Assembly: GCF_003855255.1 (NCBI RefSeq)
Contig: NZ_CP034072.1
Location: forward strand, 3,028,627-3,092,626
Source: Mycolicibacterium nivoides
GTDB taxonomy: Bacteria > Actinomycetota > Actinomycetes > Mycobacteriales > Mycobacteriaceae
Direction of reading: 5' to 3'
Length of the DNA stretch: 64,000 nucleotides
Below the pieces are notes generated by a model. That model searched no databases. It saw nothing but the letters and a program-made list of their open reading frames with translations, and was not told the DNA's origin. Both the position numbers and the translations under genes were made by a program. Shown here one piece after another: positions 29,961-35,921 of this stretch. Position 1 is the stretch's first letter. Each line of letters begins with the position of its first letter.

Positions 29961-30003
29961 CCCCAGTCGGACTCGAACCGACACTGTGCGGATTTTAAGT
30001 CCG
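29961..30003. repeat. Left attachment-site repeat (copy of tRNA-Leu 3' half)
   Basis: A 43-base sequence starting CCCCAGTCGGACTCGAACCG and ending GATTTTAAGTCCG, identical to 35851-35893. It covers the T-arm, variable loop and anticodon arm of the tRNA. Beyond base 30003 the two copies diverge at once. One C less in the acceptor run (four C and not five) shows it is not a functional tRNA end. Confidence 0.93.
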
Positions 30004-30245: not shown

Positions 30246-31553
30246 TTGGTAGCGCCGCAGCGAGATGACACGAAGCGGCTCGGGCGCGCAGTGGTGTTTG
30301 TGCACCAGCACGACCACCGAATCACAAACCCGCTAATCCGGGCAGAGGTCGAGGTACTGCTGCTTACGGGTAAGGCCATGGATTTCGCTGCCAGGCTGAA
30401 AGGTCACCAGGATTTCGTGACCCTCTCTGACGAGCTCGTTCGTCGATATGCCGCATATGCGGGATTGGGAAATCTTGAGCTGATGAACACCGTTCTACCG
30501 GCTCTCAAACGGGCGGACCTCATTGACTACCAGCTCGCGGACGGGCAAATCACGCATCTCGATGAGTACGTCGGCATCTCAGCTACCGTTGTTGAGCAAA
30601 CAGTTGCCGTGTTGAATGCGTTGTCACCTCGACGCTCAGATCTTGCGTTCCTGCACTCAGTGGAAGTTGGTGCCATAGCACCACTCGCCGAAAGCCAGCA
30701 CCTCGAGCAGATTGTTGCGCGTGGTTTCTCCGATGAGGAAGCCGCAGGGGCGCTGCAGCTTTCCCGAGCGGTAGGGCTCAACCTGGATGCACCGTCACAA
30801 GAGCTCAACGAGACAGTGGTGTACAGCCCGTACGTCTGGGGCACTAAACAACTCTCGCTCGCTAAGTTCCTACATAACCTCCCGCCGAATGAACGCGACG
30901 CGCTGCTCGGCATGAGCGAACAAGTGCTGTCCACTCCTGGCCTGCACATATCAAAATTGGCCGCCTCGAGCGCAATCGTCAGGAGCGCACAAAGTGCAGG
31001 CTTGATCCAAGTGGCGTCTGTGCGGACGTCGACGGGTGCAAGCTCAAGCTATGCGTTCTCCCCTCTCCTAGAAACCGAGGACAACACATGCACCACCACT
31101 GAGGCGTTCCACATGCGCAAGCTCTTCGTAGCGCACATCCTCTTCGGCCATGAGAAGTCCCGACCCGGTCTAGGGAACATCGCGAGTCCGAGTGTGTTGG
31201 TTAGTTCGCTCATCAACCGTGGTCGGGTGGGGCCGGCGACGAACATCGGGACCGACTATCACCTGCTGGAGGCCGCTGGCGTCGTCGCTGTGGAACCTGT
31301 TGGTAACCGGGCCTTCCTGCGACTGGTGAAGCCTGAGATCGCCGAGGCAGGGCTCGACTGGATTCGCAAGATTACGGACCCGACTGGTACTGCTGATCTC
31401 ACACTCTCGCAACGACCCGCTGAGTTCGTAAGTCCTGAGGATGCACGTCGGGTCGATGTTTCTTGGGCCTCCCACGAGATAATGGTGTCCTCGATCAACG
31501 AACTTCGGAAGGAAATGCAGCGTGCCGCCCGCCGCGAAGACCCCTGGAATTGA
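30246..31553 (+). CDS. Island protein with winged-helix-like repeats, nuclease partner
   Basis: A protein of 435 residues from TTG 30246 (GGGAAAG five bases upstream); TTG 30210 would add twelve. No family is recognised. Three segments have the helix-helix-wing rhythm of winged-helix domains: LMNTVLPALKRADLIDYQLADGQITHLD, IVRSAQSAGLIQVASVRTSTGASSSYAF and LINRGRVGPATNIGTDYHLLEAAGVVAVE (quoted in shortened form: LPALKRADLIDYQL, QSAGLIQVASVRTSTG, YHLLEAAGVVAVEPVG). This suggests DNA binding, but only by pattern. No signal peptide or TM helix. It overlaps the next gene by 32 bases, so the two are translationally coupled. It lies in a tRNA-bounded island, where defence genes are common. Confidence 0.7.
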   Translation: MVAPQRDDTKRLGRAVVFVHQHDHRITNPLIRAEVEVLLLTGKAMDFAARLKGHQDFVTLSDELVRRYAAYAGLGNLELMNTVLPALKRADLIDYQLADGQITHLDEYVGISATVVEQTVAVLNALSPRRSDLAFLHSVEVGAIAPLAESQHLEQIVARGFSDEEAAGALQLSRAVGLNLDAPSQELNETVVYSPYVWGTKQLSLAKFLHNLPPNERDALLGMSEQVLSTPGLHISKLAASSAIVRSAQSAGLIQVASVRTSTGASSSYAFSPLLETEDNTCTTTEAFHMRKLFVAHILFGHEKSRPGLGNIASPSVLVSSLINRGRVGPATNIGTDYHLLEAAGVVAVEPVGNRAFLRLVKPEIAEAGLDWIRKITDPTGTADLTLSQRPAEFVSPEDARRVDVSWASHEIMVSSINELRKEMQRAARREDPWN

Positions 31554-33177
31554 CGCTGGAACTCAAGCTGAGGTCCGGGTAGCGCAAGCTTGGTTCTGGG
31601 ACGGCTGCTACGTACGCCGGGGCGTCGATCTACAGCATCGGTTCGGAGCCGACGTCTCGCTGGTGACGGATCTAGATGTCCTCTGCATCGCCTTCGACGA
31701 TTCACTAGTCGCCCACAAGTACATCGGTGAAGTTAAGACCGGAACCTCGAAGAGCACTCCGAGACCCCTTGATCGAGCGCTATGGATTCGCGGACTGCGC
31801 GAGGTTGTCGGCGCTGAAGCCAGCGAAGTCACAACCGCGCTCCGGGTCTCGAACGTGGTCCGCGACGTCTGCAACCGCCTCGGGACCACCATCCAGCACC
31901 TAGATGATCTGCAGAAGCGCGAAATGCGCTTGCGCATCAGCGAAGTTGCGGACATGGGCTCTCAGGGCGAAACCGTTGCCCTGCTGCGCGCCGAGGTTGC
32001 CTCCTTTGTCAAGTCCGATGCAATCTTGGAACGAGGCTACTGGTTCCTAGTCTCCGAAGTATGGTTTCTGGAACCGTTTGATGCGCTGAAACGCACCCTC
32101 GGGTTGATACGTCAACTGAGCAAAGCATGGCCGCCGGAAACTGATCGAGTAGCGAACCGTGTTGCGCGTTGGTTCTTTGCTGAGGCGATTTCAATCGCAA
32201 CGGTGAACATCGCACTAGTGGCACGCAAAGCCGTCACGATGGACCCAAAGTCCTTTGCGGACACCGCAACGGCACAGCTGTCGTCGGGCGACATCCCCTT
32301 CCACTCGATGCGCGCATTGTCTGACCGCGTAGACGAGTACGTCGGCAAGTTACTCGCTTCCGTAGATGCTCCAGCAGACATGCTGGCGAGCGCAATCGGC
32401 GCGTTCCTTCCTTCGCCACCCAGCTACGCAGAACCCCTGCTCGAACTGATCATGAGACTTGCAGCTGAGGCATCGATCACGGCACGCCTACCCAGACAAC
32501 TGGATTTGATTCTGTTCGAACGCCTAGTCCACCAACGACAACTAGCGCCCGCACTCTATCCACGATTGAACCTAACGCCGTCAACCGAACGAATGATGCG
32601 GTTGGTCGCGGCATTTTTACGGGGGCAGTTCAGCATCCCCGAACCGGTGGATAAAGCTTTGACGTCATCTCTAGCCCCTTCCCCTTCAAAGCCACCGTCA
32701 TCGAAGACTGACCCCACATCACCTGATGTCCCTCGGAGCGAGGAGCCAGCCGCGCAAGGCCCCCCATCCGCGGCAACCACGACTACCTCCGCCCCTGAGC
32801 CGGCCAAGCGCGAAAGCTCCTCCGATACCGATCAAATCGGCGTGCTGCCACGGGTCGAGGGGGTGGGTTCACCTCCGCTTCGTCAGAACGGCAGTCAAAC
32901 TCAGACGCGACGGTGGCAGTTAGTACTTGAAAACCAAACTGACAGCCCCGTGACAGACGTGACATTTCACTATGAGGACGCTAACGGTCAGCAAGTACTG
33001 GAGTTCGACGTGCTTGCCGGAAAACACCACAGCATCGATCTCCTCGCCCCCCACGAATCGGTCGAATTTCCGCTCCTCCAAGTGTTCGGCTCCCCGCGGT
33101 CGGCGATCTGTGCCGTCGAGTGGTCCGATAAGGAAGGGCAACGACACGCTTCCCGGGTCACCGTCCAGGTCCCCTAG
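31522..33177 (+). CDS. Island protein with PD-(D/E)XK nuclease-like N-terminus
   Basis: A 551-residue protein starting at GTG 31522 with GGAAGGA eight bases upstream, overlapping the previous gene. The first 110 residues show the PD-(D/E)XK nuclease order: a helix with E17 (TQAEVRVAQAWF), D52 in TDLDVLCIAF, and E70-x-K72 in YIGEVKTG, as in restriction-type endonucleases. A helical middle (about 120-375) follows, then a Pro/Ser/Thr-rich linker (about 378-465) and a C-terminal beta domain (about 465-551; WQLVLENQTDSPVTDVTF) like an immunoglobulin-type sandwich. No signal peptide. The overlap with a winged-helix-like gene in a tRNA island suggests a DNA-targeting defence or restriction system. 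Overall architecture not recognised. Confidence 0.72.
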   Translation: MPPAAKTPGIDAGTQAEVRVAQAWFWDGCYVRRGVDLQHRFGADVSLVTDLDVLCIAFDDSLVAHKYIGEVKTGTSKSTPRPLDRALWIRGLREVVGAEASEVTTALRVSNVVRDVCNRLGTTIQHLDDLQKREMRLRISEVADMGSQGETVALLRAEVASFVKSDAILERGYWFLVSEVWFLEPFDALKRTLGLIRQLSKAWPPETDRVANRVARWFFAEAISIATVNIALVARKAVTMDPKSFADTATAQLSSGDIPFHSMRALSDRVDEYVGKLLASVDAPADMLASAIGAFLPSPPSYAEPLLELIMRLAAEASITARLPRQLDLILFERLVHQRQLAPALYPRLNLTPSTERMMRLVAAFLRGQFSIPEPVDKALTSSLAPSPSKPPSSKTDPTSPDVPRSEEPAAQGPPSAATTTTSAPEPAKRESSSDTDQIGVLPRVEGVGSPPLRQNGSQTQTRRWQLVLENQTDSPVTDVTFHYEDANGQQVLEFDVLAGKHHSIDLLAPHESVEFPLLQVFGSPRSAICAVEWSDKEGQRHASRVTVQVP

Positions 33178-33794
33178 ATCGGTGAAACTGCGAACCACAC
33201 GTCATCCGATTTTCAACTCTCGGACAACGGACGTTAAAGGGTGGCGCGGCTAACGCCCAGTGCATCGGAGACCACGGGCGTCAGCTCACCGTTTCCCCGC
33301 GTCCAGGAAGGCAGCGTGACTGGTGACGGTTCGCTCACGGCACCGAAGATTACAACCTTCTTACATTCGTCAGCCGGGGACAGCTAAAAACATGCACTGA
33401 CTTGGTGCCCCCAGTCGGACTCGAACCGAAACTTGGCGGATTTGAAGTTGACCCTGTACGCTTTGCCCCGATTTCAGCAAACCCCTATCGGCGCAGGTAG
33501 CAACATCGCGTGATCTACGAACCATGCTGTGTACCGACCGATTTCGGATGACTGATGGTGTTTGTTGGCGGTAGCGAGCTGCGTTCTGTCGGTCCCCTGG
33601 TGCTGGTGCTGGGGTAGTGCTGGGGCGAAATCGGCCCGCACAGCGAACGCCGCAGGTCTGGCACGTTCGATGCATTGGCTACCAAACCGCGCAAGCGCTG
33701 GGGTGAGACGGCAAACGCCGTGAGAGTAGGTTAGCTGGGCGTTTCGCTAGGTAAATCAGCCGAAATTTCCGAGCGTGCCAGTACTGTCCACGCC
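33178..33794. other. Gene-poor junction in the middle of the island
   Basis: This 617-base stretch holds no convincing gene. It contains the decayed attachment repeat at 33409-33448 and, on the minus strand at 33234-33338, a 34-codon frame from GTG with the ending SDALGVSRATL-stop, which looks like the recognition-helix end of a lost helix-turn-helix protein. It probably marks the scar between two insertions. The rest shows no structure I can name. Confidence 0.5.
33409..33448. repeat. Decayed internal attachment-site repeat
   Basis: Matches 35851-35890 of the tRNA-Leu gene at 36 of 40 positions, then diverges. The T-arm half (CCCCAGTCGGACTCGAACCG) is perfect; all four changes lie in the variable and anticodon part. 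It is preceded by GGTG, as is the left copy. It is best read as an old att site of an earlier insertion. Confidence 0.8.
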
Positions 33795-34769
33795 GTGGGA
33801 ATCTGGAAGACCTATCGAACCTTCAGCACAGCGGTGCAGTGGCTTCTCGGGCTGTCGTTCGTTCTGGGTTGCGTTGCGCTGGCGGTTGGCGTGCGTATCG
33901 ACGTCATGCGGCCCGCGTGGTGGGCAAATCTCTCATTCACACAAAACGTCGCAGCATCACTGGTCGGATTCCTAATTGGCGTTCCAGTTGCACTCACCGG
34001 ACTGGCTGCGTTTACAGCAGACCGCGAACACCGGATCGAACTCGCCAGGGTCGAAGCTCTCTCACATACGACGTGGGCGAGATTTCGCGAGGCTATATCG
34101 GAGTTCTGTAATCAAAACCGCCGTGACGCCCTGGCGGAAACGGTACCCGAACTGGATAAAAGCAAACGGGCCGTCTCCGAACTCTTGGAAGCAAATCTAA
34201 CCAAATACCAAACGGCTACACATCCAAAAAATGAGCACTTCCCAGAATTCGGTGCCGAATACGTAACAACGCGTAATGCATTCGAAAGAAATTACTACAA
34301 GGTTACCCGAAGTATCGGCACCACCTCGGAGATCGAGCTGGGATGGAGCAGGGTGCTTGCGACATGGACTGAGCTAGATGGGTACGTAAAGAATCAGCGC
34401 AGCAAAGTGGGATTGCCCTGGCTCATCGATGAAATCGACACAGATATACGCAACCGGATCACTGGCCGAGAAAATCCTATGAATGAGTTTCTACGCGTAC
34501 ACGAATACGACGCCGGCGGTGCCGAAAAGACCAGCATGGGTGAATTTCTTCGAAACATTAATGACTCCGGCGAACCGAATACAAATGACGCTGACAAATT
34601 TGGAACCTGGCTTGTACTCATGTCGGTAATGTTCAGCGATAAACACGTCTCCGATTACGGCAAGCTAGCCAATGCCGCGCTAACCGACCTTTCCGGATTA
34701 CTGAGCGCATTTCAGCGGGCCAACGATGCGGGTTGGCCTAGCGCAATTCCAACCCTGGCGGGCTCATGA
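33795..34769 (+). CDS. Island two-TM membrane protein
   Basis: A 324-residue protein from GTG 33795. Two N-terminal hydrophobic helices (about 14-34 and 50-73) are followed by a 250-residue soluble, helical domain rich in charged residues and carrying no recognised motif. Its DNA is clearly more AT-rich than the chromosome around it, with runs such as AAATCTAACCAAATACC. It overlaps the next gene by ATGA. The layout, a short two-helix membrane anchor plus a cytosolic sensor-like part, is frequent among effectors of defence systems, but homology is not shown. No good ribosome binding site is seen. Confidence 0.72.
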   Translation: MGIWKTYRTFSTAVQWLLGLSFVLGCVALAVGVRIDVMRPAWWANLSFTQNVAASLVGFLIGVPVALTGLAAFTADREHRIELARVEALSHTTWARFREAISEFCNQNRRDALAETVPELDKSKRAVSELLEANLTKYQTATHPKNEHFPEFGAEYVTTRNAFERNYYKVTRSIGTTSEIELGWSRVLATWTELDGYVKNQRSKVGLPWLIDEIDTDIRNRITGRENPMNEFLRVHEYDAGGAEKTSMGEFLRNINDSGEPNTNDADKFGTWLVLMSVMFSDKHVSDYGKLANAALTDLSGLLSAFQRANDAGWPSAIPTLAGS

Positions 34770-35509
34770 GCATCCTAGCCACGGTAGAACCGTGGCTAAA
34801 GGGTGCGATCGGACCGGTCGTCGGTTACGTGCTCGGCGTGGCAACTCCCTACGGGCGTCGGTTTCTACGCACGGCGAGAAGACAACCCGACCTACAAATT
34901 CACGTCGAGCACGATCCGGCCATCATTTTCGCGAATGCCCCTCGAAATACGGTCGGATGCCCGATGTTCGTTCCCGGCTCAACCGTCAGCTTGAATCCTG
35001 GTGATACCCAAGACGCATTCGCGATTCGGCAATGGGCACTTGAGCACGACGGGTTTCCTGCCATAACCGACTCCGTAGAGGTGACCCTTACCGCGTGGGA
35101 AAAGCTCGATGTGGTCGTGGACGCTGTAACGATCAATTGCCGCCAGATACCGATTCCTGACGGCATCGTTGTCATGGCACCCGTTGGCGGTGCGGATATC
35201 CATCGAAAGCGGCTCAACGTAGAACTGGCGGCGCATGGGGCACGCGCTGAATACGTTCCTCTCAACGATGATTCGACCAATTTCTCGTTCAAGCTTGGTA
35301 GCGGAGATACAGCGAAAATCTACTTGAACGTGTCGGCCGCGAAGTGGAGCAGTGAAAGTGAACGTGGTTACGAATGGACTGCCGATCTACATCTGCTGGT
35401 CAACAACAAGCGCAAAACAATTACCGTTGGCGATAACGGCACGCCATTTGAATTCGCTCGGCGGGACGCCGGGCCGATGACGCTGTGGAACGGCAGTGAA
35501 TGGCAGTAG
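34766..35509 (+). CDS. Island protein with membrane-proximal N-terminus and beta-rich domain
   Basis: A 247-residue protein whose start overlaps the previous stop (ATGA), so the two are co-translated. The N-terminus (LKGAIGPVVGYVLGVATPYG) is a short, weakly hydrophobic segment that may associate with the membrane. It is followed by a basic patch (RRFLRTARRQ) and a beta-rich domain of about 200 residues with alternating hydrophobic strands. No catalytic motif is evident. It forms a two-gene module with the two-TM protein; their joint job is unknown, with conflict or phage defence the most likely context. Confidence 0.7.
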   Translation: MSILATVEPWLKGAIGPVVGYVLGVATPYGRRFLRTARRQPDLQIHVEHDPAIIFANAPRNTVGCPMFVPGSTVSLNPGDTQDAFAIRQWALEHDGFPAITDSVEVTLTAWEKLDVVVDAVTINCRQIPIPDGIVVMAPVGGADIHRKRLNVELAAHGARAEYVPLNDDSTNFSFKLGSGDTAKIYLNVSAAKWSSESERGYEWTADLHLLVNNKRKTITVGDNGTPFEFARRDAGPMTLWNGSEWQ

Positions 35510-35685: not shown

Positions 35686-35847
35686 GGTACCCGAACCCAA
35701 CCACGTGTAGACACAGCCAAGGCGACGCGCTCAAGGCAGCTGCCGACAGTTTCGGGCGGGTTGTAACAATCGGTGACACCGACACCGACACCGGCGCTGG
35801 CGGCTGACCTCAAACCACCGAAATAGTCTCTACCAGTGCTTTTACAG

Positions 35848-35921
35848 TGCCCCCAGTCGGACTCGAACCGACACTGTGCGGATTTTAAGTCCGCTGCCTC
35901 TGCCAATTGGGCTATGGGGGC
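35848..35921 (-). tRNA. tRNA-Leu (anticodon UAA)
   Basis: A 74-base tRNA. The acceptor stem pairs GCCCCCA (5', 35921-35915) with TGGGGGC, discriminator A at 35848. The anticodon stem-loop is GCGGA-CTTAAAA-TCCGC, anticodon TAA. The T-arm is GTCGG-TTCGAGT-CCGAC. CCA is not encoded. The variable loop has only five bases, short for a leucine tRNA, which normally carries a long arm; the anticodon still decodes UUA. It is the integration site of the neighbouring island. Confidence 0.9.

What the first reader, a model, noticed from the sequence alone, without database searches (positions are those of the whole stretch)
30246..33177. Candidate undescribed defence module: winged-helix-type protein plus PD-(D/E)XK-like nuclease
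The two genes overlap by 32 bases inside a tRNA island. The second has the catalytic order E17...D52...E70-x-K72 of PD-(D/E)XK nucleases, then a helical region, a Pro/Ser/Thr linker and a C-terminal beta sandwich. That architecture does not match any defence system I can name. The partner shows three winged-helix-like segments, suggesting DNA recognition. Restriction-like or abortive phage defence is the simplest hypothesis.
Basis: partly seen in the sequence, partly recalled or inferred. Interest (0 to 1): 0.85.

Follow-up and report, generated by a model that had tools for sequence, protein, structure and literature searches.

The report
Two-gene nuclease defence candidate, unnamed
A pair of overlapping genes, a protein with four winged-helix domains and a DNA-cutting-type enzyme, travels together through very different bacteria on mobile DNA and often sits beside known anti-virus genes, so it is probably an immune system, one for which I found no name.

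The parts
29961..30003 (.). left att-like repeat: copy of the tRNA-Leu(TAA) 3' half
   Evidence: 43-bp direct repeat, 100% identical to 35851-35893; its 24-bp core has only these two exact matches in the whole genome
30246..31553 (+). gene A, 435 aa, protein with four tandem winged helices (TTG start likely; homologues align from residue ~4-11)
   Evidence: ORF; model pLDDT 83.6, pTM 0.85; homologues
30351..30566 (+). winged helix 1 (residues 36-107)
   Evidence: order of helices and strands in the model
30633..30830 (+). winged helix 2 (residues 130-195)
30885..31058 (+). winged helix 3 (residues 214-271)
   Evidence: order of helices and strands in the model
31104..31325 (+). winged helix 4 (residues 287-360) with the signature G329....I334..D337 Y338..L341 E342..G345
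   Evidence: order of helices and strands in the model; conservation 25-26 of 26
31522..33177 (+). gene B, 551 aa, PD-(D/E)XK nuclease-type protein
   Evidence: ORF; model pLDDT 82.5, pTM 0.66; homologues
31555..31932 (+). PD-(D/E)XK domain (residues 12-137); E17 (31570-31572), D52 (31675-31677), E70 (31729-31731), K72 (31735-31737)
31969..32664 (+). helical domain (residues 150-381), inside the part that the homologues share
32689..32832 (+). disordered Pro/Ser/Thr-rich linker (residues 390-437)
   Evidence: pLDDT under 50
32839..33174 (+). C-terminal beta-sandwich domain, uncommon accessory
33409..33451 (.). internal, degenerate att-like copy of the tRNA 3' half
   Evidence: 84% to the 43-bp repeat
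33795..34769 (+). gene C, 324 aa, unknown, hydrophobic N-terminal stretches (by eye)
   Evidence: no family match above cut-off
34766..35509 (+). gene D, 247 aa, unknown
   Evidence: no family match
35847..35921 (-). intact tRNA-Leu(TAA), carries the right copy of the repeat (35851-35893)

Best explanation
A and B form a two-subunit, mobile anti-invader nuclease. B is the effector: a PD-(D/E)XK nuclease (metal-dependent by analogy) joined to a helical domain. A is the sensor: four tandem winged helices that most likely grip DNA and hold or deliver B. Neither protein has a recognised ATPase and no methylase consistently travels with the pair, so self DNA is probably spared because A recognises a feature that host DNA lacks (a modified base, a free or branched end, or another phage DNA structure) rather than an unmethylated site. 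Engagement of that feature would license B to cut the invading DNA, or all DNA. Shown here: the genes, the two folds by prediction, conservation of the active site, the fixed A-B pairing, mobile surroundings, and frequent neighbouring defence genes. Inferred: physical complex, DNA as substrate, trigger, and protection against phage or plasmids.
For: Nuclease fold and active site. Winged helices. Of the two misses, L068 has A when a wider profile is used and L024 gave nothing (its B hit is weak, E 1.1e-4, near a contig end). Pair also in L100, L101, L102 and in the three E. coli records opened (profile match). Identity matrices of A and B correlate at r 0.978 over 26 loci, maximum 0.30 in 2000 permutations. 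Defence genes within about 7 kb in 10 of the 24 loci of the neighbour set: GajA/GajB and RmrA (L001), LmuA/LmuB (L004), LmuB (L063), type I RM (L006), AbiE (L007), type II methylase plus PDC-S71 (L008), QatA (L010), RmrA (L025), pPIWI-RE (L031), TIR/PDC-S35 (L065); an 11th, L070, has a DNA methylase. Neighbours matched 237 PADLOC families (142 proteins) against 60 for 138 control proteins. Against the window's copy, A is more identical than B in 22 of 24 loci, equal in L019, lower in L070 (L004 left out, frame error there), which fits recognition of a constant feature better than a fast-changing sequence-specificity subunit.
Against: No experiment. The named defence neighbours were picked by eye before testing, and the blind PADLOC comparison counts families, not proteins, so enrichment per protein is not known. 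The control set is not clean: it has strong matches too (PD-T4-6 4.9e-216, mad6 1e-102, MkoA 4.1e-47, RT_UG29 8.3e-42). 13 of the 24 loci show no defence gene that I could name; four of the ten neighbours matched nothing, and the UvrD-like helicase of L005 (3.2e-17) was not counted. In the window itself only C and D were scanned and neither matched. Winged helices and a nuclease would also fit DNA repair or mobile-element biology. E17 is missing in 2 of 27 and K72 in 1 of 27; P0088 looks degenerate by eye.
Confidence: 0.6

Rival explanations
1. Abortive, toxin-antitoxin-like pair: A (first gene) restrains B; infection releases B, which degrades host nucleic acid and stops the cell.
For: A precedes and, in the window, overlaps B; in WonAB, a different two-gene system with a PD-(D/E)xK protein, both genes are needed, nuclease overproduction is toxic and defence is abortive (passages of PMC12137116).
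Against: A and B co-diverge and A is usually the more conserved partner, unusual for a small fast-evolving antitoxin; A is as large as the common core of B.
Confidence: 0.2
2. Plasmid or mobile-element competition or maintenance module rather than phage defence (acts on incoming or competing replicons).
For: 14 plasmid records match A, 5 typed mobilizable and 2 conjugative, some among transfer genes; E. coli copies lie in tRNA-Pro elements with a relaxase gene.
Against: Also in proviral contigs and chromosomal loci beside Gabija, Lamassu, restriction and other genes. Plasmid carriage is common for defence systems too.
Confidence: 0.12
3. Recombination or repair factor of mobile elements, with defence neighbours being incidental.
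For: Recombinase or integrase genes nearby in several loci; folds like that of B occur in many DNA enzymes.
Against: The recombinase nearby differs between contexts (Tni-type, tyrosine recombinase, 'recombinase family' proteins, tRNA integrases), and the island in this window has no integrase match. The pair therefore behaves as cargo.
Confidence: 0.06

Closest known systems
Mrr/MspJI-type modification-dependent (type IV) restriction enzymes and AF1548
CRISPR ancillary nucleases Card1/Can2/Cdn1 (and VC1899)
   Different: No CARF family matched; B starts with the nuclease and continues into a helical domain; CRISPR loci were not searched for
Shedu (SduA)
   Same: PD-(D/E)XK immune nuclease; DNA-end sensing is a plausible analogue (passages of PMC12904381)
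   Different: Shedu is described as one protein with an N-terminal clamp; no Shedu model matched
WonAB, GrwAB two-gene systems
   Same: Two co-dependent genes with a nuclease (passages of PMC12137116)
   Different: WonA is an ABC ATPase and GrwA/GrwB carry DUF262, GrwA with a His-Me nuclease; our pair has no recognised ATPase and no DUF262 match
DefensePredictor DS systems in E. coli (PMC13092281)
   Same: 13 of 31 additional validated systems carry PD-(D/E)XK domains; HTH domains are in the figure key (sections 5 and 15)
   Different: The two accessions of the NCTC9040 copy (WP_000377565, WP_000723546) do not occur in the main text; supplements could not be read and the other alleles' accessions were not looked up, so overlap is not excluded

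Membership tests
PD-(D/E)XK nuclease superfamily (protein B) | alpha-beta-beta-beta-alpha-beta core | tested here: met
PD-(D/E)XK nuclease superfamily (protein B) | conserved D ... (D/E)xK active site | tested here: met
   D52 27/27, E or D at 70 27/27, K72 26/27, E17 25/27
PD-(D/E)XK nuclease superfamily (protein B) | metal-dependent DNA or RNA cleavage | not testable with these tools
   needs purified protein
Type I/II/III restriction-modification | cognate methyltransferase in the operon | tested here: not met
   the four island ORFs A-D gave no methylase match; no methylase recurs beside the pair in the annotated plasmid loci; those seen near other copies lie with other restriction genes or are isolated
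Type IV (modification-dependent) restriction | cuts only modified DNA | not testable with these tools
   inference only
Any system in PADLOC-DB 2.0 (2023) | match to a defence model | tested here: not met
   0 families for the window's A or B at E up to 1
Known Pfam/NCBIfam/PHROG family | match above curated cut-off | tested here: not met
   only sub-threshold matches or none
Shedu | SduA-type nuclease with an N-terminal sensor in one protein | tested here: not met
   no Pfam or PADLOC match; the nuclease domain lies at the N-terminus of B
Card1/Can2 CRISPR ancillary nucleases | CARF domain fused to the nuclease | tested here: not met
   B begins with the nuclease domain at residue 12; no CARF family matched
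Integrated mobile element at a tRNA gene | flanking direct repeat of the tRNA 3' end | tested here: met
   43-bp perfect repeat
Integrated mobile element at a tRNA gene | own integrase | tested here: not met
   11 PF00589 matches in the genome, none in the island; nearest about 49 kb away; serine integrases were not searched for

The most novel reading that the evidence does not exclude
An unnamed immune nuclease that crosses phyla (Actinomycetota and Pseudomonadota shown with both genes; A alone, by protein name, in Thermosulfurimonas and Ca. Hakubella), without ATPase, methylase or guide: four tandem winged helices in A recognise one conserved non-self property of invading DNA, read through the near-invariant G-x4-I-x2-D-Y-x2-L-E-x2-G stretch of the fourth winged helix, and license the PD-(D/E)XK enzyme B. 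It spreads as a two-gene cassette that can use tRNA att repeats supplied by other elements.
Probability: 0.35. Interest if true: 0.78.

Novelty: new variant of a known kind. Interest (0 to 1): 0.62.

Why it matters
If confirmed, this is a two-subunit immune nuclease with a sensor architecture not matched by the family libraries searched here, present in 0.7-2.0% of the actinobacterial samples searched (four of the five samples include the window's own genome) and in 22 of 5,426 E. coli genomes. How a nuclease without methylase, guide RNA or ATPase tells self from non-self is an open question, and the E. coli copies make it directly testable in laboratory strains. The window also shows how such a pair can sit as integrase-less cargo between tRNA-derived repeats.

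Tried and rejected

Empty-site test: in relative G1264 (93% identical flank gene) the same place holds a 2.1-kb insert with a tyrosine-integrase-like ORF (by eye, 252 aa) and a degenerate repeat; in G1265 it holds ordinary-looking metabolic genes (by eye) without a second repeat at 30 of 43 or better. This supports an integration site but is no clean ancestral empty site.

In one search the L004 copy of A was translated in the wrong frame; corrected for the correlation and conservation counts. In the gene lists some ORFs in GC-rich flanks are spurious.

Neighbour control: test set A3 = up to six nearest ORFs within 6 kb of 24 loci (142 proteins); control A4 = 138 of 141 ORFs from 16 arbitrary regions of eight genomes, the three longest left out to fit the size limit. 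Strong control matches (PD-T4-6, mad6, MkoA, RT_UG29) were not followed up. Several tested neighbours (some outside A3) gave nothing in PADLOC: L026 13029-14075, L028 SIR2, L032 12052-14085, L005 8474-9436, L004 13927-14481.

Literature: searches showed no description of this pair in what they listed (two were on mobile elements); the library lacks most subscription papers. Seen: passages of PMC12839542, PMC12137116, PMC12904381; PMC11090510 as a listing, and a term search that gave no passage; PMC13092281 abstract and part of the introduction, passages, sections 5 and 15. That RmrA belongs to RosmerTA and Lmu to Lamassu is recalled.

Full report
What is there. The two ORFs are real and overlap by 32 nt. 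They lie in a stretch of 56-59% GC; 2-kb windows elsewhere in the window have 63-70%. At its right end is an intact tRNA-Leu(TAA) on the minus strand. A 43-bp stretch of that tRNA's 3' half is repeated perfectly at 29961-30003 and with 84% identity at 33409-33451. The 24-bp core has only the two exact matches in the 6.9-Mb genome. The segment between the repeats holds A and B, then after the middle copy two further unknown genes C and D. No tyrosine integrase is in the island: 11 PF00589 matches exist in the genome, the nearest about 49 kb away. So this is integrase-less cargo at a tRNA site, possibly two cassettes in tandem. In relative G1264 the same site carries a different 2.1-kb insert with an integrase-like ORF (by eye) and a decayed repeat, and in G1265 it carries what look like metabolic genes.

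A fixed pair. With profiles of A and B, 29 of 31 scanned sources have both genes adjacent on one strand. Two of these, L061 and L069, repeat L006 and L030, and L002 nearly repeats L001. Of the two misses, L068 has its A partner when a wider profile is used, and L024 gave nothing at that threshold (its B hit was weak and near a contig end). The pair recurs in a Mesorhizobium plasmid, in two IMG/VR contigs and in E. coli. Identity matrices of A and B over 26 loci correlate at 0.978 against a permutation maximum of 0.30; shared descent of neighbouring genes alone can give this, so it shows co-inheritance and does not prove contact. Measured against the window's copy, A is more identical than B in 22 of 24 loci, equal in one and lower in one (L004 left out).

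How common. Matches were found in 2 of 301 genomes of the window's family, 3 of 394 of its class, 7 of 396 of its phylum with the B profile and 6 of 296 of the phylum with a wider A profile, each count including the window's own genome; and in 3 of 246 in a genus that contains the S. calvus contig. The wide A profile hits 1,075 proteins among 7,999 scored candidates, of which 120 were listed, with names such as Vibrio, Shewanella, Thalassospira, Thermosulfurimonas and Ca. Hakubella; none of the 120 has a Pfam domain in the listing, and their B partners were not checked. In E. coli the pair is in 22 of 5,426 genomes, annotated as two hypothetical proteins.

Where it sits. Genes of known defence systems lie within about 7 kb in 10 of the 24 loci of the neighbour set: GajA/GajB and RmrA (L001), LmuA/LmuB (L004), LmuB (L063), type I restriction (L006), AbiEi/AbiEii (L007), type II methylase and PDC-S71 (L008), QatA (L010), RmrA (L025), pPIWI-RE (L031), TIR/PDC-S35 (L065). 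Some rest on one component of a system, and LmuA in L004 is weak (1.6e-10). These neighbours were chosen by eye before testing, so this is not a blind count; others may have been missed. The blind comparison, 142 neighbours against 138 control proteins, gave matches to 237 and 60 PADLOC families. It counts families and can overstate the difference, because one protein can match many, and the control has strong matches of its own (PD-T4-6, mad6, MkoA, RT_UG29). The Mesorhizobium pair lies 1 kb from an Eco57I-type methylase gene followed by an N-6 methylase gene. Of the 22 E. coli records three were opened: in two the pair follows an integrase beside tRNA-Pro, with ABC-three-component genes and a relaxase gene downstream, and in one it is in an ssrA island. 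The other 13 of the 24 loci show no defence gene that I could name, apart from the methylase of L070.

How it most likely works. Without ATPase, methylase or guide, the simplest model is that A senses a property of foreign DNA and directs B to cut. The slow change of A argues against a restriction specificity subunit that tracks changing sites and for a constant target such as modified bases or DNA ends. Which trigger it is, whether only invading DNA is cut, and whether the cell survives are open. I put 0.6 on a defence nuclease of this sort, 0.2 on a toxin-like abortive pair, 0.12 on a module aimed at plasmids or competing elements and 0.06 on recombination or repair.

Novelty. The fold of B is known; its pairing with a four-winged-helix partner was not found under any name in the libraries and paper searches made here. 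Two limits matter. Most subscription papers are not in the paper library. And the DefensePredictor study validated 42 E. coli systems, 13 of them with PD-(D/E)XK domains, whose gene lists are in supplements that I could not read. The main text does not contain the two accessions of the NCTC9040 copy.

Noticed in passing
window 33795-35509: Genes C (hydrophobic N-terminus by eye) and D overlap by 4 nt and form a second unknown two-gene cassette between the degenerate middle repeat and the tRNA-Leu gene; no family matches above cut-off.
   Followed up: partly
window 29961-30003, 33409-33451, 35851-35893: Three copies of the tRNA-Leu 3' half in tandem suggest accretion of two integrase-less cassettes at one tRNA site (similar in idea to cis-mobilizable elements, a recalled term).
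   Followed up: partly
L110 9692-13627 and L111 7370-11305: In these two E. coli records the pair follows an integrase beside tRNA-Pro downstream of yejM, with ABC-three-component genes and a relaxase gene further on.
   Followed up: partly
L101 9962-13267: In a proviral contig that looks Mu-like by eye the pair is followed on the same strand by a protein that looks TIR-like by eye.
   Followed up: no
L062 10532-18495 and L063 1125-8821: Five same-strand ORFs end just before the pair in two Streptomyces-genus genomes; one (L063 2954-4492) has phage-integrase domains, so this may be a Tn554-like recombinase set (the rest by eye).
   Followed up: partly
L109 5636-10736: A His-Xaa-Ser (hxsABCD) radical-SAM cluster lies just upstream of the pair in an ssrA island of E. 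coli.
   Followed up: no
L003 4139-9839: A Tni-type transposition set (TniB, TniQ and a 734-aa upstream protein) ends 0.15 kb before the pair in Actinoplanes couchii, so the pair may be transposon cargo.
   Followed up: partly
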